In this document: positions 11,967 to 34,085 of the stretch, in pieces
Numbering within the stretch: the first letter of the stretch is position 1
Layout: every line of letters begins with the position of its first letter
DNA from: Corynebacterium aurimucosum ATCC 700975
GTDB taxonomy: Bacteria > Actinomycetota > Actinomycetes > Mycobacteriales > Mycobacteriaceae
DNA: 64,000 nucleotides
Reading direction: 5' to 3'
Assembly: GCF_000022905.1 (NCBI RefSeq)
Contig: NC_012590.1
Location: 1,736,001 to 1,800,000 of the forward strand
The notes under the pieces: model-generated
What the model saw: only the letters and a program-made list of their open reading frames with translations
Databases searched by the model: none
Told to the model about the DNA's origin: nothing
Translations under genes and position numbers: made by a program

Positions 11967-12019
11967 CTCACCCGCCAGAGCAGCTCGCCGCAGCATGGTG
12001 CCGCCCGAGTAGCTTTCCT

Positions 12020-12078
12020 ACCTGACTGGCTCACCGACTCCACGCGGAAGCCCCGCAGAACCGTCAGGTTTTCCGCGT
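12020..12078. terminator. Convergent intergenic region with two interlocking inverted repeats
   Basis: ACCTGAC (12020-12026) pairs with GTCAGGT (12063-12069), and ACGCGGAA (12042-12049) pairs with TTCCGCGT (12071-12078). The pairs interlock, so they could form alternative hairpins or a pseudoknot. The element lies between the stops of the HNH gene (11966) and tex (12184), so a termination role is plausible. No T-run follows. The remainder of this 217-bp gap shows nothing else. Confidence 0.4.
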
Positions 12079-12183
12079 CTTCGGTGATCCCTCAACTAGA
12101 TCTCATCCCGCCGAACAAACACACCCGCCGTCCGCACTGAACGTTCTCCCGGAAAACGCGCGAACGCCGAACCGTTTGAACGC

Positions 12184-14463
12184 TTAGAAGCCGGCCTTCT
12201 TGAGGGCATCGGCCATCGAGCCACCGCCGGAACGGCCACGGCCGCCCTTGCGGTTCGAGTCACGGCGGGAGTTCTGTCCCCCACCGTTGTTGTTGCGGCG
12301 CTTGGGCGCGGGCTTGCCGGGTTCGTCGTCAAGCCGCAGCGACAAACCAATGCGCTGGCGCTCCACATCGACCTCCATGACCTTGACCTTCACCACCTGG
12401 CCCGAACGAACCACATCGTGCGGGTCAGAGACGAACTTGTGACTCATCGCGGAGACATGCACAAGGCCATCCTGGTGCACTCCGATGTCAATGAAGGCGC
12501 CAAAGGCCGCAACGTTGGTCACGGTGCCCTCCAGAATCATGCCCGGTTTCAAGTCCGAGACCTTGTCCACGCCTTCCTTGAAGGTAGCCGTCTTAAACTC
12601 TGGGCGCGGGTCGCGGCCAGGTTTGTCCAGCTCCGCGATGATATCCGTCACCGTCGGCACACCGAAGGTGTCGTCAGCAAAGTCCGCCGGAGACAGCTTC
12701 GTCAACACCCGCGAATTGCCGATGAGCTCCGAAACCCCCAGACCGGTCTTCTCCGCGATGCGCGCCACCACCGGGTAAGCCTCCGGGTGCACAGCTGAAG
12801 CATCGAGCGGATCCTTGCCACCATTGATGCGCAGGAAGCCCGCCGCCTGCTCGAAAGCCTTCGGCCCCAAGCGCGGCACCTTCTTCAACTCCTTGCGCGA
12901 GGCAAACGTGCCATTCTCATCGCGGTAGGCCACGATGTTGGCCGCAATCGTGGAGTTCACACCAGCCACGCGCTCCAGCAGCGGAGCCGACGCCGTATTC
13001 AGGTCCACGCCGACGCCATTCACGGCATCCTCCACCACGCCATCAAGGGTGCGGGCGAGCGCGACCTGGTTGACGTCGTGCTGGTACTGCCCCACGCCAA
13101 TCGCCTTCGGGTCAATCTTCACCAACTCCGCCAGCGGATCCTGCAGGCGGCGCGCGATCGACACCGCGCCGCGCAGGGAGACGTCCATATCGGGGAATTC
13201 ATCGGCTGCCAGCTGCGAAGCCGAATACACTGACGCGCCGGCTTCCGAGACCACGACGGGGTTCGGCCGCTTCCCACCCGCCTGCGCGATAAGGTCCGCG
13301 ACTTCACCGGCAAGCTTCTCCGTCTCACGCGACGCGGTGCCATTACCAATCGCCATGAGATCCACCGAATGCGCCGCGCTTAACGACGCCAACTCTCTCA
13401 CCGCCTCAGCCCACTTCTGCTGCGGCTGGTGAGGGTAGACGATGGTGGTGGCAAGGACCTTGCCCGTCGGGTCGACGACCGCGCACTTGACACCGTTGCG
13501 GTAGCCCGGGTCCAAGCCCAGCGTCGCGCGCTGGCCCGCCGGGGCCGCCAGCAGAACGTCGCGCAAGTTGGTGGCGAAAACCTTGAGTGCGCCTTCCTCG
13601 GCCTTCTCCTTGAGTCGCATGCGCACGTCGAGTCCCGAGGAGATGGAGAGTTTGGTGCGCCAGCCCCAGTGGACGGCGTCGGCAAGCCAGCGGGACGTAG
13701 ACACGTCCAGGTCGAAGCGGTCTGCGATCATGCCCTCATACATGGCGTCATCGCCGGCATCGAGGTTGAGCTGCAGCACGCCTTCATTCTCGCCGCGCAA
13801 CAGCGCCAGGATGCGGTGCGAAGGAAGCTTGTCGAAAGGTTCAGAGAACTCGAAGTAGTCCTTGAACTTCGCGCCCTCGGTTTCCTTTCCTTCCACCACG
13901 CCGGCGTTCATGGAACCGCTGGTGTACATGCGCTCGCGCACCTCGCCGACGAGATCCGCGTCCAGCGCAAAACGGTCCACCAAGATAGCGCGAGCACCCT
14001 CGAGGGCCTTCTTCGCTTCCTCGAAACCTTCGGTGAGGTACTCCCCTGCCAGTTCGGTCGGATCCGCCGAAGGGTTCTCAATGAGCTTGTCGGTCAGCGG
14101 CTCTAGGCCGGCCTCACGTGCGATATCCGCCTTGGTCTTGCGACGCTTCTTATACGGCAGGTACAGATCCTCCAGGCGCGCCTTGGTTTCGCAGCCTTGG
14201 ATGAGGGCACGCAACTCGTCGGTCAGCTTGCCCTGCTCCTCAATCGCGGCAAGCACCGTTTCCTTGCGCTCCTCCAGTTCCTGCAGGTAGGTCGAGCGTT
14301 CCTCGATGATACGCAGCTGCGAGTCATCCAGCCCGCCGGTGGCTTCCTTGCGGTAACGGGCGATGAACGGAACGGTGTTACCCTCCGCCATGAGCTTGAG
14401 GGCGGCTTCGACAAACTGTTCTTTGACGCCCAGCTCTCCAGCGATGGTGGCTGCGATATTCAC
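12184..14463 (-). CDS. tex: Tex-like RNA-binding protein (YqgF/HhH/S1)
   Basis: Tex proteins bind RNA and are linked to transcription and RNA turnover. Their exact biochemical job is not settled. The 759-residue protein shows the family architecture: a helical N-terminal domain, a YqgF/RNase-H-like domain beginning [17 protein letters not shown], a helix-hairpin-helix region with [15 protein letters not shown] and [14 protein letters not shown], and an S1 domain starting [16 protein letters not shown]. The C-terminus is a basic Gly/Arg/Asn-rich tail after the S1 domain. It starts with GTG at 14463 behind an AAAGAGG ribosome-binding site. The gene stands between trmD and the HNH gene on the minus strand. 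Confidence 0.92.
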
Positions 14464-20507: not shown

Positions 20508-20535
20508 AACGAAGAATGCTGCTGCATTCTTCGTT
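20508..20535 (-). terminator. Intrinsic terminator of ffh
   Basis: AACGAAGAATGC (20508-20519) and GCATTCTTCGTT (20524-20535) form a perfect 12-bp stem with a TGCT loop. The stem overlaps the ffh TAA stop codon (20534-20536). It is placed back to back with the plus-strand terminator. On the minus strand it is followed by TTAAGAAAG, so termination strength is uncertain. Confidence 0.6.
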
Positions 20536-22129
20536 ATTTCTTTTTGCCCTGCCCAAAGTCCAGGTTGTTGAGGTCGATATTCTCCATGCCCTTGGGCATC
20601 TTGATATCCCCTAGCCCGGGCATGCCGCCGCCGAGCTGTTCCTGCATCTTCTGCAGTTCCTGCATCGACGGCATTCCACCCGGCATACCGCCGCCACCAC
20701 GACGCTTCGGCGGCTTGCGCTTGCCGTTCTTGCCCTTACGGCCCTTCGGCTTCTTCTTGGTAGCAGAACGCCCTCCACCCATGCCCGGCATGCCAAAACG
20801 GCCGGCCATCTGAGACATCATCTTCTTGGCTTCGGTGAAGCGCTCGATGAGCTGGTTGACGTCAGACACGCTCACGCCAGAACCGAGGGCAATACGCTTG
20901 CGGCGCGAGGCGTTGAGAATCTTCGGGTTCTCACGCTCCTCCGGCGTCATACCGCGGATGATGGCCTGAATACGGTCGAGCTGCTTTTCGTCGACCATGT
21001 CGGCGATCTGGTTCATCTTGTTGCCGCCCGGCATCATCTTGAGCAGGTTGCCCATCGGGCCCAGGTTGCGCACCATGAGCATCATGTCCAAGAAGTCATT
21101 GAGCGTCATCTCGCCGGAGCCCATCTTCTTGGCGGCTTCCTCCGCCTTGGACTGATCCAGCTTGGATTCCGCCTGCTCAATAAGTGTCAGCAGGTCACCC
21201 ATGCCCAGAATGCGCGAGGACATGCGCTCCGGGTGGAAGACATCGAAGTCCTCGAGCTTCTCACCGGTAGAGGCGAACATGATGGGCTTGCCCGTGACCT
21301 CACGAATGGACAGCGCCGCACCACCGCGGGCGTCACCGTCCAGCTTGGTCAGGACGACACCGGTGAAGTCCACGCCATCGCGGAAGGCCTCGGCGGTCTG
21401 CACGGCATCCTGGCCGATCATGGAGTCGATGACGAAGAGGACTTCGTCCGGGTTGACGGCATCGCGGATGTTGCGTGCCTGCGTCATCAGGGTTTCATCG
21501 ATGCCCAGGCGGCCGGCGGTATCGATGATGACGATATCGTGCTGCGTGCGCTTGGCTTCCTCAATGCCGCGCTTGGCGACGTCAACCGGATCCCCGTGCG
21601 AGGTACCCATCTCATGCTCGTGGGAATCCAGGGAGGTACCCGGATCCGGAGCGTAGACGTCTACCCCGGCGCGCTCGCCGACGATTTGGAGCTGCTGCAC
21701 CGCGCCCGGGCGCTGGAGGTCACAAGCTACCAGCATCGGGGTGTGCCCCTTGGCGGCCAGATGCTTAGAAAGCTTGCCCGCCAAGGTCGTCTTACCAGCA
21801 CCCTGGAGGCCGGCGAGCATGATGACCGTCGGCGGGTTCTTCGCCAGGTTCAGGCGGCGGGTCTCGCCGCCGAGAATCTCGATGAGCTCCTCGTTGACAA
21901 TCTTGACTACCTGCTGCGCCGGGTTCAGCGCCTCGGAAACCTCGGCGCCTGCCGCACGTTCCTTAATGCGCTTAATAAAGCCGCGCACGACGTTGAGCGA
22001 GACGTCCGCCTCCAGCAACGCCAGACGGATTTCGCGTGCTGTGGCGTTGATGTCCGCCTCGGTCAGCTTGCCCTTGCCGCGCAGGCCGGACAGGGCTGAT
22101 TGCAAGCGGTCAGACAAAGACTCAAACAC
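20534..22129 (-). CDS. ffh: Signal recognition particle protein Ffh
   Basis: Ffh binds 4.5S RNA and nascent signal sequences and docks with FtsY at the membrane. The 531-residue protein has the N domain, then the GTPase motifs LAGLQGAGKTTLAGKL (G1), DTAGRLGIDE (G3) and TKLDGDARGG (G4/G5 region). The M domain from about residue 320 contains LNDFLDMMLMVRNLGP and a methionine- and glycine-rich C-terminus with runs of basic residues, which binds RNA and signal peptides. It starts with GTG at 22129. It is followed upstream by glnD on the same strand with a 50-bp gap. Confidence 0.97.
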   Translation of the reverse strand: MFESLSDRLQSALSGLRGKGKLTEADINATAREIRLALLEADVSLNVVRGFIKRIKERAAGAEVSEALNPAQQVVKIVNEELIEILGGETRRLNLAKNPPTVIMLAGLQGAGKTTLAGKLSKHLAAKGHTPMLVACDLQRPGAVQQLQIVGERAGVDVYAPDPGTSLDSHEHEMGTSHGDPVDVAKRGIEEAKRTQHDIVIIDTAGRLGIDETLMTQARNIRDAVNPDEVLFVIDSMIGQDAVQTAEAFRDGVDFTGVVLTKLDGDARGGAALSIREVTGKPIMFASTGEKLEDFDVFHPERMSSRILGMGDLLTLIEQAESKLDQSKAEEAAKKMGSGEMTLNDFLDMMLMVRNLGPMGNLLKMMPGGNKMNQIADMVDEKQLDRIQAIIRGMTPEERENPKILNASRRKRIALGSGVSVSDVNQLIERFTEAKKMMSQMAGRFGMPGMGGGRSATKKKPKGRKGKNGKRKPPKRRGGGGMPGGMPSMQELQKMQEQLGGGMPGLGDIKMPKGMENIDLNNLDFGQGKKK

Positions 22130-22179: not shown

Positions 22180-24279
22180 TTAGCCGTTGACCAGTGCTTG
22201 GGTCACATTCCGGACCAGGGTGGCACGGGGGACGTCGCCAAGCGGCACGGCGTGAAGCACCATCGTGGCACCCGGTGTCGTGGTGGATAGCCACTCGCAC
22301 TCCGGAAGCAGCGCCAGCACGTGGCCCAGGGTACCTGGGTAGTCATCGATTCGAACCTCGAAGACTCCCCTGGTCCACATCGCAGTCGCGGGCCCTGGTA
22401 CAAAATCTGGCAGCACCGTGTAGGTTCCGGATTTATAGGACTGCACGAGGCGTTCCTCCACCGTTGCGAGATCAATGGCGCCGTGGAGGGCGCGGATATC
22501 GAATTCGCCGGCATAGCCCTCCTCGGTGCGCACGAGGCGCGAGGATAGGATGTTCCAGCCCAACGCGGCGATGAGCGCCAGCGCGCGCACTGCCTCCCGC
22601 TGGTAGCTGCCGCGCCACAGGACGGTAAAGCTGTCATCCTCGGGATTGTGGCGCAATCCGATGTCGCGGTCGGCGGCAACCAGAGGACGAACTGGGCGAA
22701 GTGCTTCCAGTTGTGCGAAAGCGCGGCCACTGACCGTTTCGATTCCTTGCTCCAGCCTGTGGTTCCACACGCCTGGACCAGTGGACTCGGCATCGGTACG
22801 GGCGAGTACCACGAGGAGCGCCAGGGTCAGGTAGTCATAACGCACGGCTTCGAGGAGCTCGTCACGGGCCTCATCGGATAAGGGGTCCGTGCGGGAGACG
22901 ATGCGCGCTAGAGTGGTGTGCTCTGCGACCACGGTTTGCACGCGGGAGCGATCCGCCAGGTCGAGACCGAGCTTGGCCGCGGCACGCGCCACTATCTCCG
23001 CCCCTACTAGCTCGTGCGGGCGGCCATAGCCTTTCCCGATATCGTGGTAGAGCCCCACCAAGAGCAGCAGATCGGGCCGGGCTACGGAGGTGCGGGCTTC
23101 TGCGCAGCGCGCGACGGTAAGGATGGAGTGGTAATCCACGGTGTGAGCGTGCGTGCGCTCGCGCGGCAGCAATCCTCGAATGTGCTCCCACTCTGGGACG
23201 ATTCGCTCCCACAGGCCATGGGCGTCCATCTCTTGGATAAGGCGCGGGGTATTGAGAGGTGAGGACAACAGGCTGAAGAAGGCATCCGTCGCTCCCGCGG
23301 GCCAACGTTGAGGCAATTCTGGTAGCTCGCGTAGCTGTTCCCAGACGTGGGGCGGCACGCTTCTACCCGAGCGTGCTGCTGCGGCGGCGACGCGCAAAAG
23401 CAGCCACGGCTCATCCAAGTCGGCGGTGCGTGCGAGGCGGATCTCGCCCCCGGCATCGACCACCCCGATATCGAGGGGTTTGCGTGTGCGGTTGTGGCTG
23501 CGTTTGGATACGACTCCCCGGGCAGTTGCCAATGCCCTCTCCACGGCTTTGTCTACCGCGGTAGCAGCGGTGACGACGGCCGCTGACAGGTCATAACGGT
23601 CAGCAAAGCCCAGTTCATGTGCGATCTCCGCGGCGAACTCTGGGTCGAGGACGTCGCGGTGGCGGCGGGCGGTGACATGGAGGAGCGTGCGGACGTCGAG
23701 AAGCAGCGCTTGTTCCTTCTCGAGCGCTGGGGCGTCGGCGAGGTTTCCTAAGGCGAGGGCCCGGAGGAATTGGATATCGCGCAGACCGCCGCGCCCATTC
23801 TTGATGTCCGGGTGGGTCATCGTGGCCAAGGTGCCGGAGCGACGCCAGCGCGCAATGGCGAGGTCGACGAAAGCATCAAAGTTGCTCTGCAGCAGGCGGC
23901 GCCACGAGGCATAGACCTGGGCGCGGGTGGAATCCACCAGCTGTTTATCTCCGGCAACGAAAGCCAGGTCCAGCTGCGCGAAACCGGCGGCGGGATCGGA
24001 ACCGGCGATAGCGCCGAATTCGCGCGGGGTGCGCACCGCATAATCGAGCCGATACTTGGCGTCCCAAATCGGATACCAGACCCCGGAAACGACGTCCTCG
24101 GGTAGCTCCGTGTCATCAGGGTGAAGGAGGATGAGGTCGAGATCCGAAAAAGGAGTCATCGCCCGGCGGGCAAAAGATCCCGTGGCGGCAAGGGCGCAGC
24201 CAGGCGGAAGCTGCAAGGACTGCGTGAGGCGCATCGCCGAGGCATAGGCGTCCTCACGCAGTTGAGCGGCCGTAGACAC
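22180..24279 (-). CDS. glnD: PII uridylyl/adenylyltransferase GlnD
   Basis: GlnD modifies and demodifies the PII protein GlnK according to nitrogen supply. In corynebacteria the modification is adenylylation. The 699-residue protein has the nucleotidyltransferase motif ATGSFARRAMTPFSDLD near residues 30-48, an HD hydrolase domain with LYHDIGKGYGRPHELVG around residue 410, and C-terminal ACT-like regulatory sequence (VRIDDYPGTLGHVLALL). It is shorter than the roughly 890 residues of E. coli GlnD, as in other corynebacteria. It begins with GTG at 24279, just after the glnK stop, so the two are coupled. Confidence 0.93.
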   Translation of the reverse strand: MSTAAQLREDAYASAMRLTQSLQLPPGCALAATGSFARRAMTPFSDLDLILLHPDDTELPEDVVSGVWYPIWDAKYRLDYAVRTPREFGAIAGSDPAAGFAQLDLAFVAGDKQLVDSTRAQVYASWRRLLQSNFDAFVDLAIARWRRSGTLATMTHPDIKNGRGGLRDIQFLRALALGNLADAPALEKEQALLLDVRTLLHVTARRHRDVLDPEFAAEIAHELGFADRYDLSAAVVTAATAVDKAVERALATARGVVSKRSHNRTRKPLDIGVVDAGGEIRLARTADLDEPWLLLRVAAAAARSGRSVPPHVWEQLRELPELPQRWPAGATDAFFSLLSSPLNTPRLIQEMDAHGLWERIVPEWEHIRGLLPRERTHAHTVDYHSILTVARCAEARTSVARPDLLLLVGLYHDIGKGYGRPHELVGAEIVARAAAKLGLDLADRSRVQTVVAEHTTLARIVSRTDPLSDEARDELLEAVRYDYLTLALLVVLARTDAESTGPGVWNHRLEQGIETVSGRAFAQLEALRPVRPLVAADRDIGLRHNPEDDSFTVLWRGSYQREAVRALALIAALGWNILSSRLVRTEEGYAGEFDIRALHGAIDLATVEERLVQSYKSGTYTVLPDFVPGPATAMWTRGVFEVRIDDYPGTLGHVLALLPECEWLSTTTPGATMVLHAVPLGDVPRATLVRNVTQALVNG

Positions 24280-24282
24280 GTG

Positions 24283-24624
<342 letters not shown>

Positions 24625-25739
24625 TTACTCCTTAGCTCCGGCGGTGTCGACCCGCGGCTGGACGGTTGGTGCAGGACTAATCCTAGCGTCGTGGGTGTGG
24701 CGACGGTGCGACGCCACGGATTCGCGGAAATCATAGGCGGTCTCGCGGTGCTCACCCAGGTCGATCCCCTTCGCTTCATCTTTGATTCGCCAGCCCATGG
24801 TGGCGCGGATGAGGAGCGCCGCAAGAAGTGTGACCAGCCCCGACACCAGCATCGCCACAACCGCAATCAGCGTTTGAACGACGAGCAGCTTAAGTCCTTC
24901 AGAAAAGTGACCGGTGAGGATGCCGTTATCCGTAGCAAAGAAGGCTAGGCCAATCGTGCCCCACAGTCCTGCGCACAGGTGCACGCCGACGACGTCCAAG
25001 GAATCATCGAAGCCCCAGCGGTACTTCAGGCTGATGCACAGGCAGGCGATAATCCCACCGAGGAAGCCGAGGGCGATGGAACCGAGCGGGCTGAGCGCTC
25101 CTGCAGCCGGGGTGATGGCCACGAGGCCTGCGATAGCGCCCGATGCAGCGCCGAGTGAAGTGGCGGCACGGTCACGGATTCGCTCCACCAACATCCAGCC
25201 GAGCATCGCGGCTGCGGCCGCAACGGTGGTGTTCAACCACGCCACACCTGCAAGGCCATCCGCGGCGAAGGCGGAACCGCCATTGAAACCGAACCAGCCA
25301 AACCACAGCAGCGCGGCACCGAGCATCACCATCGGGAGGTTGTGCGGCCTATCGACGTGCTTCGGAAAACCCGCGCGTGGGCCCACGACGATGGCCAGAA
25401 CTAAGGCAGCTGCGCCAGCGGAAATGTGCACGACGGTACCGCCGGCGAAGTCGATGGGAGCAATGAGGGCCTCACCGTTTGATACACCGAAGAGCCACGC
25501 CGCGAGGGAGTGTGGGGCGTGGGAGAGCACTCCCCCGCCCCACACCATGTGGGCGAGCGGGAAGTAGGCGAAGGTCACCCAGATACCCGCGAAGGTTAAC
25601 CAGGCCGAGAACTTCACACGGCCGGCGATGGCACCGGAGATAATAGCCGTCGAAATAATGGCGAAGGTGGCTTGGAAGCCGATATCGATGACGTTGGGAT
25701 AACCAGCACTGTCCTCACCGCTTTCCTCAAGCTTTGCCC
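24625..25739 (-). pseudogene. amtB: Ammonium transporter gene truncated at its 5' end
   Basis: From about NVIDIGFQATFAII to the C-terminus this frame is a clear Amt ammonium transporter. It has the gate phenylalanine in GFQATFAI, FAGGTVVHISAG (first pore histidine), GWFGFNGGSAF and VVGVHLCAGLWG (second pore histidine). The first two membrane segments, roughly 85-100 residues, are missing. Upstream the Amt frame runs straight into mrpG, whose TAG stop is at 25740-25742. The only way to extend it is a GTG at 25911 that reads mrpG out of frame and gives nonsense. No ATG with a ribosome-binding site opens the Amt part. The remaining 371 codons have no stop or frameshift, so the loss looks recent. 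Confidence 0.85.
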
Positions 25740-26108
25740 CTAGATTTCCTCCTCGGAAGCTTCCACAGTCTGCGCTTGCTGGCGCATACGTTTGGCGTAC
25801 TTCACATCCGTGACGGTCACGCCGTAAATGGAACGGCCCATGTAAAAAGAGCCCACCGAACCGATGATCCACACGCCGAAACAAGCAATGAGGACACGGA
25901 CCAGCGACCACAGCGAGAACCCGTTCTCGGCAAAGTCAACGACCAGCTTCGCCACGAGCAGAAGAGGAACGGCCAACCCGACCGTCGGCCCCAGCAGGTT
26001 GACTCGGGTCAGAGCATCGGGCGCGCGCCACAAAGCGATGGCCGTCGCGATAACCAGGAGCGTGGCCACAACCAGCAAAACCGAAGCAATAATCTCCGCG
26101 ATAGTCAT
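25740..26108 (-). CDS. mrpG: Na+/H+ antiporter subunit MrpG
   Basis: MrpG is a small subunit of the Mrp multisubunit Na+/H+ antiporter. The 122-residue protein has three hydrophobic segments: MTIAEIIASVLLVVATLLVI, LLGPTVGLAVPLLLVAKL and VRVLIACFGVWIIGSVGSFY. The family segment FYMGRSIYGVT follows. I start it at the ATG at 26108, since the longer frame adds a basic out-of-frame reading of mrpF. The end EASEEEI looks like a natural C-terminus, so the junction with amt did not remove mrpG sequence that I can see. Confidence 0.93.
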   Translation of the reverse strand: MTIAEIIASVLLVVATLLVIATAIALWRAPDALTRVNLLGPTVGLAVPLLLVAKLVVDFAENGFSLWSLVRVLIACFGVWIIGSVGSFYMGRSIYGVTVTDVKYAKRMRQQAQTVEASEEEI

Positions 26109-26112
26109 GGTT

Positions 26113-26403
26113 TTACCTCCTGCCCTTCGAGATGATGCGGGCCATCGACAACGTCGGCAGCACGCCCGCCGCGATGCCAGCGAGCATCGCGATGTCATAG
26201 ACGATGGACGCGTGATTGGTCATGGCCCACGCAAAGTACATGCACATCATGCCGTAGAAGACCATGTCACTCATCACGGTGCGGGTGAGCTCATCGCGAG
26301 ACCGCAACGCCAGCACCAACGCCGAGCACACCGATGCACCAATGAGGAACACACAGACAAAAACAACCCATTGAAAGGCGCTCATCGAGGAAAAATCAAT
26401 CAC
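26113..26403 (-). CDS. mrpF: Na+/H+ antiporter subunit MrpF
   Basis: The 96-residue protein is predicted to have three membrane segments and is a core small subunit of the Mrp antiporter. The segment VLALRSRDELTRTVMSDMVFYG corresponds to the conserved DR-x-D loop in MrpF families, and it ends LPTLSMARIISKGRR. The ATG overlaps the mrpE stop by 4 bp and the stop is 4 bp before mrpG. Confidence 0.92.
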   Translation of the reverse strand: MIDFSSMSAFQWVVFVCVFLIGASVCSALVLALRSRDELTRTVMSDMVFYGMMCMYFAWAMTNHASIVYDIAMLAGIAAGVLPTLSMARIISKGRR

Positions 26404-26954
26404 TTCTTATCATCCTTTCGGGCGTCCTTGCCCGGCACGACCTGACGCAGCGGCCACACGGAATACTTCTCCACGTCGTTCGCTGCCAACGGGGTATCGT
26501 CCGCCTTCGCGATATCGGGGGCGCGCATATGACGTCCCAGCGTATCCAGCGGATACTCGTAGAACGTCGGGGCGAGCTCCTCCGTCGGGCCCTGGCCAGG
26601 CACGCCATAGTCAATGCCCTTCACTCGTGGCGCGAGGCGCTCCTCCATGTCCGCGAGGTCCACCATGACGCTGGACGGGTCATCCCCCATCACGGCTTGG
26701 ACCAGCACGATGCGCGGAAGGCCTTCGGCAACCGGCTCGCGCAAGCCCAACGACAAGGTGCCCGGCGTTGCTGTAATGGACGAGGTGAACCAGAAGATCT
26801 CCCAGGCGCTCGTCACACGCAAGGGGTACCGAAGCACCACGGGGCGGTAATTGTTCTGCGGCTTGAAGGATTCCATTGCGAGCGAAAAGCCCGCGACGAA
26901 GATCTCCTTAATGAGCCACAGCGCGTAGACAACTGCATGCACAGCACTCTTCAT
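26400..26954 (-). CDS. mrpE: Na+/H+ antiporter subunit MrpE
   Basis: The 184-residue protein has an N-terminal hydrophobic segment (AVVYALWLIKEIFVAGFSLA) followed by the MrpE core YRPVVLRYPLRVTSAWEIFWF and SITATPGTLSLGL, whose T-P-G-T motif is characteristic. The C-terminal 60 residues are charged and probably cytoplasmic. It starts directly after the mrpD stop with no spacing. Confidence 0.93.
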   Translation of the reverse strand: MKSAVHAVVYALWLIKEIFVAGFSLAMESFKPQNNYRPVVLRYPLRVTSAWEIFWFTSSITATPGTLSLGLREPVAEGLPRIVLVQAVMGDDPSSVMVDLADMEERLAPRVKGIDYGVPGQGPTEELAPTFYEYPLDTLGRHMRAPDIAKADDTPLAANDVEKYSVWPLRQVVPGKDARKDDKK

Positions 26955-28496
26955 TTAACGGCCCTCCTGAAGGGAGTCGATGTCGGGTAGGGCTACGGGG
27001 TCGTCGCCAAGCACTGCGTGTGCATAAGCTTCCGTATCCAACAAGTCCGCTGAGGCTTCCATGGTGAGACTGATGACTGGTCCGGAGAGGATGAACATGG
27101 TCAGCGAGCCCAAGATGAGGGCCGCCGAGGGAGCCATCAACTTCTTGCGGATCACCAGCTCATCGGGCACCTTCTCCTTGGGCAAATCCTTGCCCCAGAA
27201 GACGCGACGCCACACGCGCAGCATAGCCAGGAACGCCGCGAAGGAGGCGATGATAATCACCGCGATGACCGTCCACGCCCATGCCCCGCCGGTTCGGGCG
27301 ACCTCCGCGACGATGAGCACCTTGCCCCACATGCCGGAGAAGGGCGGGAAGCCCACGACGGAGAAGGCACCGGCGGCGAAGATCCACGCGATGATGGGAT
27401 CGCGGCGCGCCAGGCCGGAAAGCTTATTAAGCCTGCCCGTGCCGTACGTCTCCTCGATGGCACCGGAGGCCAGGATGAGGGAGCCCACCGTGAGCATGTG
27501 GTGAATCGTGTAGAGAATGCCGGCGGCCAACGCGCGCTGCGCATCATGGGTGGTGAAGGCCATCATCACGAGGATGAAGGGCATACCGTTGAGCATTTGG
27601 TAGCCCAGCACACGGCGGATGGAGTTCTCAGCCAAGCCGCCGAAAGCGCCCACCACCATGGAGATGATCATGATAACGATGATGAGTGTCCCCCAGCGCT
27701 GGTCCATATCGAAAAGCTGGACCCACAGGCGGTAGAGCATGTACACCGCAACCTTGGTGTGCAGACCGGAGAACAGGCCCATGACGGCGGCCGAAGTACC
27801 AGGGTAGGTACGCGGCAGCCAGGACTGCACGGGGAATACGCCGGCCTTCGCGGCGATGGCGATAACGATGATGCCGGACGCCACCGTCACCGGACCGTTG
27901 CCGGCGGCAGCACCCGTGAGCGCAGCCAAGTTGACCACCCCGGCCACCGAGTAGATATAGCCCACGCCAACCACAAGCAGCGTGGAGGCAAACAGATTGA
28001 CCAACACGAAAGCGCGGCCGGCCGCCAAGCGCGACCACGTGCCCGACATCGTGATGAGGCCATAGGACGGCAAGAGCATGACCTCAATGAACACGAAGAA
28101 GTTAAAGAGGTCAGCGGTCAGCAGGGCGCCGCACACGCCGGTGATCAGGATAAGGGTCAGCGACGGGTAATAGCGCGACTTGGTCTCACCGCCAACGATG
28201 GCGAACCAGTTAGCGCCGAAGGCCACGATCATCGTCGTGATGAGCATGAGAGCCGAGAAGGTATCGGCCGCAAAGGCAATACCCGCGTTGCCCACGTAAT
28301 TACCCACGCTGTGCGCCACAACGCCGTTATTCATGGTGTAGAGCAGCAGCGCAAAGGAGGCGAAGATACCCACGCCCGGAACGATGAGCATGATGGCATC
28401 GCGCACACGATGCCACGGCGCGAGCAGTGCGAGCGCCGCCGAAACGAGGGGAACCGCTGGGAAGAGCGGGAGGAGGGCACTTACGGTGTCATACAT
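26955..28496 (-). CDS. mrpD: Na+/H+ antiporter subunit MrpD
   Basis: MrpD is a large proton-translocating subunit homologous to NuoM/NuoN of complex I. The 513-residue polytopic protein shows the conserved loop FIEVMLLPSYGLI with its membrane glutamate, AKAGVFPVQSWLPRTYPG with the key lysine, and GLFSGLHTKVAVYMLYR. It lies directly after mrpC and before mrpE with no gaps. Confidence 0.95.
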   Translation of the reverse strand: MYDTVSALLPLFPAVPLVSAALALLAPWHRVRDAIMLIVPGVGIFASFALLLYTMNNGVVAHSVGNYVGNAGIAFAADTFSALMLITTMIVAFGANWFAIVGGETKSRYYPSLTLILITGVCGALLTADLFNFFVFIEVMLLPSYGLITMSGTWSRLAAGRAFVLVNLFASTLLVVGVGYIYSVAGVVNLAALTGAAAGNGPVTVASGIIVIAIAAKAGVFPVQSWLPRTYPGTSAAVMGLFSGLHTKVAVYMLYRLWVQLFDMDQRWGTLIIVIMIISMVVGAFGGLAENSIRRVLGYQMLNGMPFILVMMAFTTHDAQRALAAGILYTIHHMLTVGSLILASGAIEETYGTGRLNKLSGLARRDPIIAWIFAAGAFSVVGFPPFSGMWGKVLIVAEVARTGGAWAWTVIAVIIIASFAAFLAMLRVWRRVFWGKDLPKEKVPDELVIRKKLMAPSAALILGSLTMFILSGPVISLTMEASADLLDTEAYAHAVLGDDPVALPDIDSLQEGR

Positions 28497-28934
28497 CTAG
28501 TTGTCCTCCTCTTGTTCAAGTTCTTTCAATCTGTCCATCTTGTTCGCTGAGCGCTCCAGAATCTCCCTGTTCTGGGTGTCTCGTCCCAGCGTGGAGAAGG
28601 CGTGGTCAATAGTGTTGTCATCCACGGGTTCAACAACATCCGTGTCATCGTTGGCACCCATCGCCGCCATGGTCAGCAGGATGGTCGAGGTAGCCATGGA
28701 AATCACCACGGCGGTCAGAACGAAGGCCTGCGGCAAGGGGTCAGCCATCTGGTCCATGCCCACCTGCGATGGGAAGGACTCACCGCGGTAGGAGTACACG
28801 CCGGTGGCCAAGAGCATGAGGTTTGCGCCATGTCCAAAGGCCATCATGCCCAGCACGATGTGCACGAGGCCGCGCTGCTGGATGAGGTAGACGGCGCTAC
28901 CAATGAGCAATGCAATGGTCAGTGCGAGGATCAT
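28497..28934 (-). CDS. mrpC: Na+/H+ antiporter subunit MrpC
   Basis: MrpC resembles NuoK of complex I. The 145-residue protein has three hydrophobic segments, with VLGMMAFGHGANLMLLATG matching the NuoK/MrpC core and PLPQAFVLTAVVISMA the last segment. A charged tail of about 45 residues is longer than in many homologues. Its start overlaps the mrpA stop by 4 bp. Confidence 0.94.
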   Translation of the reverse strand: MILALTIALLIGSAVYLIQQRGLVHIVLGMMAFGHGANLMLLATGVYSYRGESFPSQVGMDQMADPLPQAFVLTAVVISMATSTILLTMAAMGANDDTDVVEPVDDNTIDHAFSTLGRDTQNREILERSANKMDRLKELEQEEDN

Positions 28935-31912
28935 GAGTTCTTCTCCTCTTGAGCCGAAGTGTGGTGGGGCGAAGACGCGCGGTGTCGTGCCTCGGATTCA
29001 TTGAGCAATGCCAGCGGATCCGAGGAGGGGTTGATCGATTCGGGGTACGGGTCATCGACATCCTCCAGCACCACGCGCGGGGTGTTTGGCAGCGCGGAAT
29101 CATCATCGTGGACCCATGGCAAGAAGTCCCGCTCGGTACCCGGGCGCAAGTAGCCGCCCAAAGCATTTATGGCCATGGTGAGCATGCCCAACACCGCGAG
29201 GTAGATGCCCAAGTCGAAGATGAGCGACGTCGTCCAGTGCTGCCCCAGGGCGTGGCCATGGATGGCCGTCAGGAAACCGCCAGAGCTATGCGACGTCGGG
29301 ATGTAGCCAATGAAGCCAGCCACCAGCGCCACGATGATGCCCACGCCGGTGAGGTGAATCGGAGTCATGCGCCCGAAGACAATCTCATCGGTACCGCGCG
29401 ACAGATAGGTCAGGCCGATAGCCGCACCCATGATGAGCGCCGCCGGGAAGCCGCCGCCGGAAGCCTGGTGGCCGCGGTAGAAGACGATGAAGGACATGAC
29501 CACCAGGATCGGGATGGCCACAGCAATACCCTTGCGCAGCGGCACCGAGTTGAGCTGTGATTGGCCAAACGGCGCTGGGCGCGTACCGGAGGTAAACGGG
29601 AAACGCGGCAGCGTCGAGGTGACCGCAGCGATAACCACGGCGGCCATGCCCAGCACTGACAGCTCGCCCAGGGTATCGAGTGCACGGAACTCCACGATGA
29701 TGGTGGCCACCACGTTGTCGCCACCAGTAATATCCGGTGCGTTGTTGAGGTACCACATGGCCAGATCCGAGCGCTCGTGACGGCCCATCAGCGCCCACAC
29801 GCCCAGGAATGCGGTAAGCCCAGCGAGCACGGCTACGACGATGGAGCCCACCTTGCGGTTGTTGTTTTGTACTGGGTGGAACTTCTCCGGCAGGTAGCGC
29901 AGGACCATCATCATGACGATGACGGACAGCGCCTCCACCGTGAACTGGGTCAGGGCCACGTCGGGTGCGCCGAGAAGGAACATCTGCAAAGTCACGCCGG
30001 TTCCCGCGGTACCAATCATCACCGCACCTGTGAGGCGGTTGCGTGTACGCACCAAACCAAACATGGACAGCGCCACGATGCCCAGCGGCAGCAGGTCCCA
30101 CGGATTATCAAGGCCGTCCACGCGTGGGTTGAGAGCCACACCGTCGACACCCGTGGACACCAGCGTGGAGCCCGCAAGGATGATGACGAGGAGGACGATC
30201 GGCAGGATCAACTTCGACGGGTTGTGGGTATCGGACATGCGGCCAACGAAACGGCCGAAGGCTGCGCACACATCCTGGATCCACTTCAGGATTTGGTTAC
30301 CGGTGCGCGGCAGGAGCTGGCGCTCCTCCATCGCGGTCCACAGCGGCCCGCGGAAGAACAACGCAACGATGCCAGCGATCAGCACCACCACAGAAATGAG
30401 CAGCGGAACGTTCAGGCCGTGCCACAGCGCGAGGTGGGAATGGCCCTCCATGCCGATAGCCGCCACGATATTATCGAGCGGCTTATCGAGCGCTCCCATG
30501 ACGAAGATGATCGGCACCGACATCACACCGGGCAGCGCTGCGGGCAGCCACAACCGCACCGGTGCCTCATGAACATGCGACATGTTGCGCGGGCCATCGA
30601 AGAAGGCACCGAAGATGATCTTGGCGGAGTAAGTAAAAGTAAAGAACGCACCCACACCGGCGACGATGAGCAGCAGCGCCTGGCCGGTTGAACCGATTGG
30701 TGCCTCCTCGAAGGCGGTGAGCATTCCTTCCTTCGATACGAAGCCAAACAGCGGCGGGACCGCTGCCATGGAGGCAGCACCAATGAGCATGGAGCCAAAG
30801 GTCCACGGCATCTTGTTCCACAGCACACCAAGGCGGCGGATATCGCGGGAACCAGCCTCGTGGTCGATGACGCCAATGAGCATGAAGATGGAAGACTTAA
30901 ACAGTGCGTGCGCCAGTGTGTGGACGAGGGCCGCTGCGATGGCGAAGGGGGTGCCAACACCAATCGTGGCCACAATCCATCCCAGGTGGGACACGGTGGA
31001 GTACGCGGTCAGCTTCTTCAGGTCCGTCTTCTGAACGGCGAAGACCGCCGACATCACGGCGGTACCCATACCGGCGACGATGAGCAGCCAATTCCACGCA
31101 GCAACATCATGGAAGATGGTGGAGAAACGAATCAACAGGTAAACGCCGGCCTTCACCACGGCCGCTGCGTGCAGGAAGGCCGAGACCGGCGTGGCGGCCG
31201 CCATGGCCTCCGGCAGCCAGAAGTGGAAGGGGAACTGCGCGGACTTGGTAAACGCCGAGACCGCAATGAGAATGGCAACCCCGGCGGTCAGGCCCGTGCG
31301 CTCGGCCCACACGTCGGAGGCGAGGATGCCCTCGAGGCTCGTGGTCCCCGCAGCCGTTGCGGCAATCGCCACGCCGGACAGCAAGGTGAGGCCGCCGATG
31401 AAGGTCAGGATCAACGTGCGCTGCGAACCGGCCTCGCCGGACTTACCGCTGCGTGCGATGAGCATGAAGGACGCCAGCGATACCAGCTCCCACGCCAGGA
31501 AGAGCACCACGACATCGTTAGCCAGCACCAGCAGGAGAATCGACAGCGTAAACGCTGTCATCAGCACATAGAAACTGACGTTTCCTTTACCTTTGGGCAG
31601 GTAGGCCGCAGAGTAGGTGAACACCACTGCGCCGATGACGAGAGCCAGCATGGCAAAGAAGATGCCCAGCGCATCGCCCCGGAAGGCGAGATTAACGTCG
31701 ACGCCTGGAGCGATGACATCGCGCACCCACGTCACGGAATAGGACAGTTCTTCGCCACGGGCCAGTGCCGGAAATTCTTTAGCCAACAGTGCCGCGGCGA
31801 CAATAAAAATGCCGGCTAGGGGGTAGCCGGCTGCGCGATCAGCAACCTTGACGGCTACTGGTGCTAGCGCCACTGCGACAGCTGCGAGGAGGACGACATA
31901 CAAGAGTGTCAC
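28931..31912 (-). CDS. mrpA: Na+/H+ antiporter subunit MrpA, fused A-B type
   Basis: The 993-residue polytopic protein contains a NuoL-like antiporter core (FLAWELVSLASFMLI, TKSAQFPFHFWLPEAM, VSAFLHAAAVVKAGVYL, LVHTLAHALFKSSIFMLIG) and a C-terminal extension with MrpB-like sequence (ALDTLGELSVLGMAAVVIAA, GVGIIVALVAGFIGY). No separate mrpB is present, which fits the fused form known in corynebacteria. The start is a GTG at 31912. The set A, C, D, E, F, G is complete, so the antiporter should assemble and support Na+ tolerance and alkaline pH homeostasis. The operon lies between ftsY and the amt remnant. Confidence 0.95.
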   Translation of the reverse strand: MTLLYVVLLAAVAVALAPVAVKVADRAAGYPLAGIFIVAAALLAKEFPALARGEELSYSVTWVRDVIAPGVDVNLAFRGDALGIFFAMLALVIGAVVFTYSAAYLPKGKGNVSFYVLMTAFTLSILLLVLANDVVVLFLAWELVSLASFMLIARSGKSGEAGSQRTLILTFIGGLTLLSGVAIAATAAGTTSLEGILASDVWAERTGLTAGVAILIAVSAFTKSAQFPFHFWLPEAMAAATPVSAFLHAAAVVKAGVYLLIRFSTIFHDVAAWNWLLIVAGMGTAVMSAVFAVQKTDLKKLTAYSTVSHLGWIVATIGVGTPFAIAAALVHTLAHALFKSSIFMLIGVIDHEAGSRDIRRLGVLWNKMPWTFGSMLIGAASMAAVPPLFGFVSKEGMLTAFEEAPIGSTGQALLLIVAGVGAFFTFTYSAKIIFGAFFDGPRNMSHVHEAPVRLWLPAALPGVMSVPIIFVMGALDKPLDNIVAAIGMEGHSHLALWHGLNVPLLISVVVLIAGIVALFFRGPLWTAMEERQLLPRTGNQILKWIQDVCAAFGRFVGRMSDTHNPSKLILPIVLLVIILAGSTLVSTGVDGVALNPRVDGLDNPWDLLPLGIVALSMFGLVRTRNRLTGAVMIGTAGTGVTLQMFLLGAPDVALTQFTVEALSVIVMMMVLRYLPEKFHPVQNNNRKVGSIVVAVLAGLTAFLGVWALMGRHERSDLAMWYLNNAPDITGGDNVVATIIVEFRALDTLGELSVLGMAAVVIAAVTSTLPRFPFTSGTRPAPFGQSQLNSVPLRKGIAVAIPILVVMSFIVFYRGHQASGGGFPAALIMGAAIGLTYLSRGTDEIVFGRMTPIHLTGVGIIVALVAGFIGYIPTSHSSGGFLTAIHGHALGQHWTTSLIFDLGIYLAVLGMLTMAINALGGYLRPGTERDFLPWVHDDDSALPNTPRVVLEDVDDPYPESINPSSDPLALLNESEARHRASSPHHTSAQEEKNS

Positions 31913-32100: not shown

Positions 32101-34011
32101 TTACTTCTCCCCCAGCAAGGCATCCACGAAGCCCTCAACCTCAAACGGTGCAAGGTCGTCTGCGCCTTCGCCAAGGCCCACGAGCTTGACCGGCACGCCC
32201 AGTTCCTCCTGAACTTGGAAGACGATGCCACCCTTGGCGGTGCCATCCAGCTTCGTGAGGACAACGCCGGTGATGTCAACAACATCGCGGAAGATGCGGG
32301 CCTGGGTCAGCCCGTTCTGCCCCACCGTCGCATCCAACACGAGCAGGACCTCATCGACGTCCGTCTTCTTCTCCACCACGCGCTTGACCTTGCCCAGCTG
32401 GTCCATGAGGTCCACGGAGGTGTGCAGACGGCCAGCGGTGTCAACGAGAACAACGTCCACGCCTTGGTCAACGCCAGCAGCCACGGCGTCGAAGGCCACG
32501 GAGGCTGGGTCCGCGCCTTCCTTGCCGCGCACGGTGGTAGCGCCCACGCGGCGGCCCCAGGTCTCCAACTGGTCCGCAGCCGCTGCACGGAAGGTATCTG
32601 CCGCGCCGAGCAAGACGTTGTGGCCCATGGAAACGAGCACGCGTGCCAGCTTGCCGGTCGTGGTGGTCTTGCCAGTGCCGTTGACGCCGACAACCATGAT
32701 GACGGCCGGCTTGCCCTCATTCGGCATGGCCTTGATGGAACGGTCCATCTCCGGGTGGCCCACCTCGATGAGGGCCTCGCGCAGCATGGCGCGGGCTTCC
32801 GCCTCGGAGCTCACTCCGCGCTCCGCAATCTTGTCGCGCAGGGAGTCTGTAACCTGCATCGTGGACTTCGTACCCAAATCCGCCATGATGAGGGTGTCTT
32901 CGATTTCCTCCCAGGCATCATCATCCAGGTCACCTGCGGAGAGAATACCCATGAGGCCTTGGCCGATGGCATTCTGCGAGCGCGACAGGCGCCCGCGCAG
33001 CTTGCCCAAGCGGCCGGCAGCCGGCGCAATATCCTCCTGCGGCTGGGCTGCCGGAGCCTCGACAACCTCAGCGTCGTCGGATACCTCTAGCTCCTCGGGC
33101 TCAGCCTCGAGCGCCGCGCTTGCCGACGCCGCCTGGGCCCCCGCCGCCGCGGCAGCCTCCTCAGCTTCTGTTTCCGTTGCATCCGCACCTGCTTCTGCAT
33201 CGGTATCGGCTTCTACGTCTTCTGCTTCTGCCGCGGTTACTTCTTCGGCCTCAACCTGGACGGAAGGCTCCTCCTCTGCCTTCGGGGCTTCGACTATCGG
33301 CTCCGGTTCAGCAATCTCTGGTTCAGCGTTCTCTGGTTCGGTGGCCGGGACAGCTTCCTCCGTGTCCTCTTTATCCTTATCAACAGCAGCGGCACCGGAT
33401 ACGGCAGCACCAGCGGCTGCGGCGCCCGCGGCACCTGCCGCGACAACGCCAGCGGAGGAATCCTTATCCTCTTCTTCCTTTGCCGGCTCCTTCTGTGCAG
33501 CCGGTTCCGGCTCGCTCACGGGCTTCGCATCGGCAACAGGCTCCGGCTTGGGCTCTGCCTGAGGCTTCGGTTCCGGCTTAACCTCAGGCTTAGCCTCCGC
33601 CTCGGACTTGGCATCTACCGTTGGTTTTGGCTCCGCCTTAGGCTTCGTATCCTTCGGTGTTTCCTCGGCGCCCTCTAACTGCGCATTCGCTAGCTCAGTG
33701 GCATCACGCTGCTCAGACCTCTTCTCCGCTTGCGGCTGAGCTTTGGGCTCGGCCGGTGCGGGCTTCTCAGCCTTAGCCGCAGGCACAGGTTCCTTGGTAG
33801 CGCCGCCGCCAGCCGGGGCAAAATTAAAACCAGACTTGGCCTGGTAGTTGCCGGACTTCTGCTGCTGGGTCAGCTCCTTCGGCTCCTCCGCGGGCTTTTC
33901 GAAGGAGACCTTCTTTGATTCGCCGCGCTTCTTGCCCAGAACAACGAACAAGACCACCAACAGAATCAGGACGATGACTGCTATTGCAATCCACAGAAAA
34001 GTAGTATTCAT
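32101..34011 (-). CDS. ftsY: Signal recognition particle receptor FtsY
   Basis: FtsY is the membrane receptor for Ffh-ribosome complexes. The 636-residue protein has an N-terminal membrane anchor (about residues 4-25), a roughly 300-residue linker rich in Ala, Glu, Pro and Lys repeats, and a C-terminal NG domain with GVNGTGKTTTTGKLA, DTAGRLHTSVDLM and TKLDGTAKGG. The linker contains an Ala/Gly/Val-rich hydrophobic patch near residue 200. I chose the ATG at 34011 because GGAAAGC lies just upstream. An ATG at 34020 is the alternative. The neighbour smc ends 74 bp upstream on the same strand. Confidence 0.94.
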   Translation of the reverse strand: MNTTFLWIAIAVIVLILLVVLFVVLGKKRGESKKVSFEKPAEEPKELTQQQKSGNYQAKSGFNFAPAGGGATKEPVPAAKAEKPAPAEPKAQPQAEKRSEQRDATELANAQLEGAEETPKDTKPKAEPKPTVDAKSEAEAKPEVKPEPKPQAEPKPEPVADAKPVSEPEPAAQKEPAKEEEDKDSSAGVVAAGAAGAAAAGAAVSGAAAVDKDKEDTEEAVPATEPENAEPEIAEPEPIVEAPKAEEEPSVQVEAEEVTAAEAEDVEADTDAEAGADATETEAEEAAAAAGAQAASASAALEAEPEELEVSDDAEVVEAPAAQPQEDIAPAAGRLGKLRGRLSRSQNAIGQGLMGILSAGDLDDDAWEEIEDTLIMADLGTKSTMQVTDSLRDKIAERGVSSEAEARAMLREALIEVGHPEMDRSIKAMPNEGKPAVIMVVGVNGTGKTTTTGKLARVLVSMGHNVLLGAADTFRAAAADQLETWGRRVGATTVRGKEGADPASVAFDAVAAGVDQGVDVVLVDTAGRLHTSVDLMDQLGKVKRVVEKKTDVDEVLLVLDATVGQNGLTQARIFRDVVDITGVVLTKLDGTAKGGIVFQVQEELGVPVKLVGLGEGADDLAPFEVEGFVDALLGEK

Positions 34012-34085
34012 GCTTTCCATAGTGCCAGGGTTGTCCACGTACGGCACGATAAGGAGGGTGAAAAGTGCTGGGCGCAAGCCCCGCC

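What the first reader, a model, noticed from the sequence alone, without database searches (positions are those of the whole stretch)
24625..26108. Ammonium transporter gene truncated exactly at the mrpG stop codon
The Amt frame is intact from about the third membrane segment to the C-terminus, but the first two segments are gone and replaced by mrpG, whose TAG is at 25740-25742. The Amt and MrpG frames differ, so no simple fusion is made. The order ffh-glnD-glnK-amtB-ftsY-smc is, from memory, the C. glutamicum arrangement. Here the whole mrp operon stands between amt and ftsY, so insertion of the operon, or a deletion joining it, probably destroyed amtB. The lack of stops in the remnant suggests a recent event or a retained truncated product.
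Basis: partly seen in the sequence, partly recalled or inferred. Interest (0 to 1): 0.75.

Follow-up and report, generated by a model that had tools for sequence, protein, structure and literature searches.

The report
Recent deletion beheading an ammonium transporter gene
In this bacterium a small, apparently recent deletion removed the start, the control sites and the first fifth of its only ammonium-transporter gene, and probably left the nitrogen-sensing genes behind it to be read from a neighbouring sodium-pump operon; close relatives carry the whole gene, so this is mainly gene decay, though similar losses recur in the genus.

Summary
The truncation is real, but mrp did not cause it. The window is Corynebacterium aurimucosum ATCC 700975. 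Sister species have mrpG directly before a full-length amt of about 461 codons. This strain lacks 425-429 bp. The break lies not at the mrpG stop codon but about 36 nt beyond it, in what relatives show is the mrp terminator hairpin, at the word AGTGCTG. Lost are the terminator's 3' arm, the AmtR-type operators, the leader, the start codon and about 100 codons (two membrane segments). The remnant is the genome's only Amt match and has no plausible start site, yet shows 11 silent and 0 replacement private changes: most likely a recent pseudogene. Inferred, not shown: glnK-glnD left AmtR control and are read through from mrp. Such loss recurs: 7 inferred events (6 if one weak node is wrong) in the mrp-linked clade; 30 of 201 genomes have glnK without amt. 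Of the 29 of these examined, 1 keeps an exact AmtR box before glnK; 21 of 27 amtR-bearing genomes with amt have one before amt. Ordinary decay with an interesting regulatory by-product.

The parts
24625..25703 (-). amt remnant, from about codon 103 to 461 of an ammonium transporter plus stop (24627-24625); codons 101-102 lie in the junction word; probable pseudogene
   Evidence: PF00909 match to the end of the profile; aligns with 461-aa relatives from SAGYP on
25704..25710 (-). deletion junction: AGTGCTG, probable microhomology
   Evidence: word present in G209 terminator DNA and in G154 and G124 amt; none of four relatives has both copies
25714..25724 (-). left-over 5' arm (AAAGCGGTGAG) of the mrp operon's intrinsic terminator
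   Evidence: complete hairpin with T run in relatives, z -5.0 in G080, -4.4 in G209, -2.0 in G124, -1.3 in G154; in the window z +0.5 to +1.5
25740..26108 (-). mrpG, intact; stop TAG at 25742-25740
   Evidence: 99% identical to G080, 92% to G154
26113..31912 (-). mrpF, mrpE, mrpD, mrpC, mrpA, rest of the Mrp antiporter operon; gene names recalled, not from a family search
   Evidence: ORFs; same order in relatives
24283..24621 (-). glnK (PII protein), intact, own Shine-Dalgarno-like AAGGAG, Tyr51 present; name recalled
   Evidence: 97-99% identical to four sister species; dN/dS 0.02-0.03 against them; sequence
22180..24279 (-). glnD (PII-modifying enzyme), intact; name recalled
   Evidence: ORF; 96-97% in four sister species; dN/dS 0.03-0.04 against them
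20534..22129 (-). ffh, conserved flank; name recalled
32101..34077 (-). ftsY, conserved flank upstream of mrp; name recalled

Best explanation
An ancestral locus ftsY-mrpACDEFG-[terminator][AmtR boxes]-amt-glnK-glnD-ffh suffered one recent deletion of about 427 bp between a point in the mrp terminator hairpin and a point about 100 codons into amt. Shown by comparison: the 3' arm of the terminator, the operators, the leader, the start codon and about 100 codons are gone, and this was the only amt in the genome. Inferred: the remnant makes no transporter; the deletion was a slipped-pairing event aided by AGTGCTG and the hairpin; transcripts of mrp now read through the amt remnant into glnK-glnD; and AmtR no longer controls glnK. 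The amtR gene has an intact frame, so AmtR's other targets could still respond to GlnK.
For: Full-length amt directly behind mrpG in sister species. Deleted length 427, 429, 425 and 428 bp against G080, G154, G124 and G209. Intergenic DNA on the left of the junction and amt on the right. 441 bp of the matching G080 stretch have no convincing copy elsewhere in the genome: best E 0.09 over 30 bp. Terminator hairpin in relatives, none found at the junction here. Exact AmtR box between mrpG and amt in 9 of 9 mrp-linked amt loci and none here; control in 38 loci with a scorable amt start: 21 of 27 amtR-bearing and 0 of 11 amtR-less genomes. AmtR ortholog present, 67% identical to the recalled C. 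glutamicum sequence; in the PDB search the fourth and fifth best matches are named AmtR protein, the top three TetR family transcriptional regulator. 11 silent and 0 replacement private changes in 360 remnant codons; chance 1.5e-7 to 8e-7 if 72-76% of neutral changes are replacements, an assumed figure. No in-frame start with a Shine-Dalgarno-like sequence, judged by eye.
Against: None of the four relatives carries AGTGCTG at both ends, so the microhomology is reconstructed. No transcript data: read-through is inferred; 1.1 kb of untranslated remnant could end transcripts before glnK, or an unseen promoter may exist (the sigma-70 scan found 0, but corynebacterial promoters are poorly covered). 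The 11:0 pattern would also fit a retained, selected short protein. Two predicted short Amts of other corynebacteria, P0015 (363 aa) and P0064 (366 aa), begin near the same place. The original reads could not be checked.
Confidence: 0.82

Rival explanations
1. One reading: the mrp operon inserted into amtB and destroyed it.
For: In several other corynebacteria amt follows ftsY without mrp, e.g. G210, G121, G111, so mrp may have entered this locus at some time.
Against: Seven genomes (G080, G124, G011, G205, G161, G074, G013) show mrp between ftsY and an open amt frame; an eighth, G154, shows mrp-amt on a contig that starts inside mrpA. The left side of the junction is mrp-amt intergenic DNA.
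Confidence: 0.02
2. The remnant is a functional shortened Amt made from an internal start or by reinitiation after mrpG.
For: Frame open over 371 codons; no private replacement changes. The protein database holds predicted short Amts of other corynebacteria that begin near the same place: P0015, 363 aa, 69% identical, and P0064, 366 aa, 67% identical, 12 member sequences.
Against: The first in-frame GTG or ATG codons (25617, 25578, 25548) lack a Shine-Dalgarno-like sequence; two transmembrane helices of a fold whose PDB relatives align from the first residues are missing; G080, G154 and G124 keep the full length. The held genomes nearest to P0064 (G030, 98%) and P0015 (G117, 88%) have full-length open frames of 445 and 465 codons, so those short forms may be gene-calling or private losses; their own DNA was not seen.
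Confidence: 0.07
3. Assembly or gap-closure artefact in the 2010 pyrosequenced genome.
For: 454 data, 70 chromosomal contigs closed later (PMC2830990, passages seen).
Against: Single-copy region; only a 7-bp word at the junction; both sides align with sister species; related G108 shows an independent, larger loss at the same place.
Confidence: 0.07
4. glnK-glnD are expressed from a promoter of their own inside the remnant, as the spacing suggests for the eight genomes of the G006-G132 group, so no fusion with mrp exists.
For: In that group 225-234 bp of spacer follow mrpG; by eye they hold terminator-like hairpins and a GCTAGAAT-like -10.
Against: The mrp terminator hairpin is destroyed here and no promoter-like site was found at 24560-25900.
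Confidence: 0.25

Closest known systems
Amt/MEP/Rh ammonium transporter family (PF00909), corynebacterial AmtB
   Same: Residues 101-461 match closely; gene lies directly upstream of glnK and glnD
   Different: TM1-TM2, start codon and leader deleted; not expected to make a channel
AmtR-controlled amtB, glnK and glnD of C. glutamicum (PMC2723105, passages seen)
   Same: amt, glnK and glnD adjacent; amtR present; relatives carry CTAT-N6-ATAG boxes
   Different: Operators deleted here; terminator separating mrp also cut
Pseudogenes formed by short-repeat deletion in bacteria (recalled)
   Same: One 0.4-kb deletion with a short, probably shared word at the junction, rest of frame intact
   Different: Also removes a terminator and operators, so it probably rewires downstream genes

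Membership tests
Amt/MEP/Rh transporter (PF00909) | Profile match over the curated cut-off | tested here: met
   307.5 bits against 23.2
Amt/MEP/Rh transporter (PF00909) | Complete transporter core including TM1 and TM2 | tested here: not met
   Profile positions before 71 or 76 absent; 461-aa relatives start 100 residues earlier
Amt/MEP/Rh transporter (PF00909) | Start codon with ribosome-binding site | tested here: not met
   All in-frame ATG, GTG and TTG listed; none with a Shine-Dalgarno-like sequence, judged by eye
Amt/MEP/Rh transporter (PF00909) | Ammonium transport | not testable with these tools
   needs uptake assay
AmtR-regulated operon | CTAT-N6-ATAG operator in front of the amt-glnK genes | tested here: not met
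   No box with up to 1 mismatch on the minus strand of 25000-25745. Elsewhere the genome has 5 exact CTAT-N6-ATAG sites, against 19 for the reversed control, and no CTATN6ATAGAAA
AmtR-regulated operon | amtR gene present | tested here: met
   G000:C2:898728-899441, open frame
Single mrp-amt remnant-glnK-glnD transcription unit | No terminator between mrpG and glnK | tested here: inconclusive
   Main hairpin destroyed; the scan of 24560-25900 lists 2 weak candidates against 1.1 in shuffles, one of them inside the remnant at 25321-25309; no RNA data

The most novel reading that the evidence does not exclude
In Corynebacterium, loss of amt repeatedly rewires nitrogen sensing: the deletions take the AmtR operators with the transporter, so the PII signal pair glnK-glnD, which is kept together with amtR, leaves AmtR feedback and becomes the tail of the mrp sodium/proton antiporter operon or of another constitutive unit (7 inferred losses in the mrp-linked clade, 6 if one weak node is wrong). 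C. aurimucosum shows an early intermediate, G108 a 29-codon remnant, and G191, G214 and G088 the finished mrpG-glnK neighbourhood with a 22-bp gap.
Probability: 0.4. Interest if true: 0.5.

Novelty: new member of a known kind. Interest (0 to 1): 0.33.

Why it matters
It explains an odd gene junction as simple decay, and it offers a natural series (whole amt, beheaded amt, 29-codon scrap, none) for how a PII regulator outlives its usual partner transporter. Across 201 corynebacterial genomes the repressor amtR follows glnK rather than amt: 29 of 30 genomes with glnK but no Amt match have amtR, and 0 of 26 with Amt but no glnK match do. That makes the idea testable that GlnK-AmtR signalling, rather than GlnK-Amt gating, is what selection keeps in this genus.

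Tried and rejected
Rejected: insertion of mrp as the cause; truncation at the stop codon itself; the missing part having moved elsewhere in the genome; a second amt. Short Amts in relatives: of 7997 protein matches only the best 120 were listed. The nearest short one, P0008 (330 aa, 92%, from a 1.6-kb contig), starts at an internal codon and cannot show the junction. P0015 and P0064 start near the same place in less related corynebacteria; the nearest held genomes have the full length. G200 looked N-terminally cut; its N-terminal part lies next to it in another frame.

Results against or weakening my reading: none of four relatives has AGTGCTG at both ends. Genes disagree locally (dS between this genome and G080 is 0.13 at mrpG and 0.21 at amt, but 0.57 at glnD), so recombination could have moved amt states. 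The count of 7 losses assumes irreversible loss on one tree; it falls to 6 if G076 does not group with amt-bearing G161 (support 74), and two nodes inside the large amt-less group have support 45 and 50. The 28 tree taxa were picked for carrying or lacking amt, not at random, and G006, G166 and G194 have an amt elsewhere, so theirs is loss at this locus only. Gaps of 13 nt cannot hold an AmtR box. 6 of 27 amtR-bearing genomes with amt also lack an exact box; the 38 loci scored were best matches at hand, out of 162 of 242 genomes with a match. G022 keeps an exact box before glnK although amt is gone, and G188 one with a mismatch. Boxes were sought in the mrpG-glnK gap only for 14 of the 29 genomes and in 600 nt for 15. 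G127, counted as without Amt, has a weak match with the full-length query. The weak amtR matches of G029, G103 and G184 were dropped. The Fisher test ignores relatedness. The G154 and G124 hairpins are weaker than those of G080 and G209.

Full report
Identity of the window. The window lies in a contig of 2,790,189 bp of a two-contig genome whose other contig has 29,037 bp. These are the chromosome and plasmid sizes given for Corynebacterium aurimucosum ATCC 700975 in PMC2830990 (abstract and passages seen). In that paper's main text the words ammonium and AmtR do not occur, and its Table 1 lists 4 chromosomal pseudogenes. A search for papers holding both aurimucosum and amtB listed two, on other subjects (listing only).

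The observation. Reading the minus strand, mrpG ends with TAG at 25742-25740 and an open frame of a different phase continues to the stop at 24627-24625. It matches PF00909 from profile position 71 or 76 to the end and is the only such match in the genome. So the gene is truncated. It is not truncated at the stop codon, however: the next 36 nt resemble the mrpG-amt intergenic DNA of relatives.

Sister species. A genus search with the remnant found 97%, 93% and 92% identical open frames in G080, G154 and G124, and a 93% identical but frameshifted amt in G209. In all four, mrpG lies upstream and amt starts 159-161 nt after it. More distant genomes G011, G205, G161, G074 and G013 have the same order with an open amt. 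The order mrp-amt-glnK-glnD-ffh is thus older than the damage, with smc-ftsY seen before mrp in all of these but G154, whose contig begins inside mrpA (the fetched stretch of G074 stops inside glnD). Mrp did not break amt. Some corynebacteria have ftsY-amt without mrp (G210, G121, G111 and others), and G117, G134 and G030 have a more distant mrp-like set there, 39-48% identical.

The deletion. Measured between mrpG's stop and a conserved amt motif, this genome is 427, 429, 425 and 428 bp shorter than G080, G154, G124 and G209. On the left of the junction stands the 5' arm of a hairpin that in the relatives is a terminator-like stem followed by a T run (z -5.0 in G080, -4.4 in G209, -2.0 in G124, -1.3 in G154). 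The break falls at AGTGCTG, which in G209 lies in the hairpin's loop and the pairs next to it, and in G154 and G124 lies in amt at the matching place; none of the four relatives has both, so slipped pairing between two copies is an inference. The lost stretch has no convincing match elsewhere in the genome. Lost with it are the AmtR-type boxes CTAT-N6-ATAG that stand before amt in 9 of 9 mrp-linked loci with amt, in agreement with the published AmtR box tttCTATN6AtAGat/aA (PMC2723105, passage seen).

State of the remnant. In 360 aligned codons this genome has 11 private silent and 0 private replacement changes; G080, G154, G124 and G209 have 13.5 and 8.5, 12 and 3, 27 and 5, 9 and 2. If 72-76% of neutral changes are replacements, 11 to 0 has a chance of 1.5e-7 to 8e-7, so the gene was under selection until recently, or the remnant still is. 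In-frame starts at 25617, 25578, 25548 and later have no Shine-Dalgarno-like sequence (judged by eye), which favours a young pseudogene. Against this, two predicted short Amts of less related corynebacteria begin near the same place (P0015, P0064), though the nearest held genomes have the full frame. Pairwise dN/dS of glnK (0.02-0.04) and glnD (0.03-0.05) among the five genomes shows strong constraint, and Tyr51 of GlnK, the adenylylation site in C. glutamicum (PMC7919409, passages seen), is present.

Consequence. The amtR frame is intact and its protein matches solved AmtR chains. The box before amt is a good marker of control: exact boxes occur within 300 nt of amt in 21 of 27 amtR-bearing and 0 of 11 amtR-less genomes among 38 with a scorable amt start, and a control motif in 0 of 38. 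With boxes and terminator hairpin gone, glnK-glnD most likely depend on read-through from mrp. There are no RNA data, and the scan found no promoter-like site and only weak terminator-like sites.

A recurrent outcome. In one sample of 201 of the 242 genomes held for the genus, 138 have an Amt match and 142 a glnK match; 30 have glnK without an Amt match, 33 have neither, 112 both, 26 Amt only. AmtR is found in 29 of the 30, in 86 of the 112, in 0 of the 26 and in 12 of the 33 (three weak matches dropped). Of the 30, 29 were inspected upstream of glnK, all but the fragmentary G127; one, G022, keeps an exact box. In the mrp-linked clade 18 fetched loci have mrpG followed by glnK: G108 retains the last 29 codons of amt, and G191, G214 and G088 have 22 bp between mrpG and glnK. 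G006, G166 and G194 among them have an amt elsewhere. On a tree of nine proteins from 28 genomes, irreversible loss needs 7 events, with this genome and G108 separate, or 6 if one node of support 74 is wrong; taxon choice was not random and recombination is visible.

Verdict. A recent, single-step pseudogenisation of amt by a deletion of about 427 bp: real, explained, and ordinary in kind. The part worth following is the repeated release of glnK-glnD from AmtR control. The papers listed by the searches (one search showed 10 of 100) do not describe it in title or abstract start, but I read none of them for it in full and most subscription papers are not held.

Noticed in passing
L178 (G209) 12016-13399: The amt of this sister species is split into two frames near codon 160: an independent break or a sequencing error.
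   Followed up: partly
L155 (G108), just after mrpG: Only the last 29 codons of amt remain before a 99% identical glnK: an independent, larger deletion in a very close relative.
   Followed up: partly
G006, G128, G176: Two glnK genes: one 88% identical to this window's glnK (in G006 it follows mrpG), the other 67-68% identical and next to an amt elsewhere.
   Followed up: no
G173:C1:2024242-2026520: Two glnK copies flank one amt gene.
   Followed up: no
201 corynebacterial genomes: amtR presence follows glnK, not amt: 29 of 30 genomes with glnK but no Amt match have amtR, 0 of 26 with Amt but no glnK have it.
   Followed up: partly
L183, L187, L190 (G117, G030, G134): A different mrp-like set, 39-48% identical, also stands between ftsY and amt, so mrp genes may have entered this place more than once.
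   Followed up: no
L207 (G200) and L209 (G164): Two other corynebacterial amt genes are split between reading frames, G200 at about codon 100 and G164 near codon 150-160: further decay or sequencing errors.
   Followed up: no
P0015 and P0064: Predicted Amt proteins of 363 and 366 aa from other corynebacteria start near the point where this remnant starts; whether these are real short genes was not settled.
   Followed up: partly
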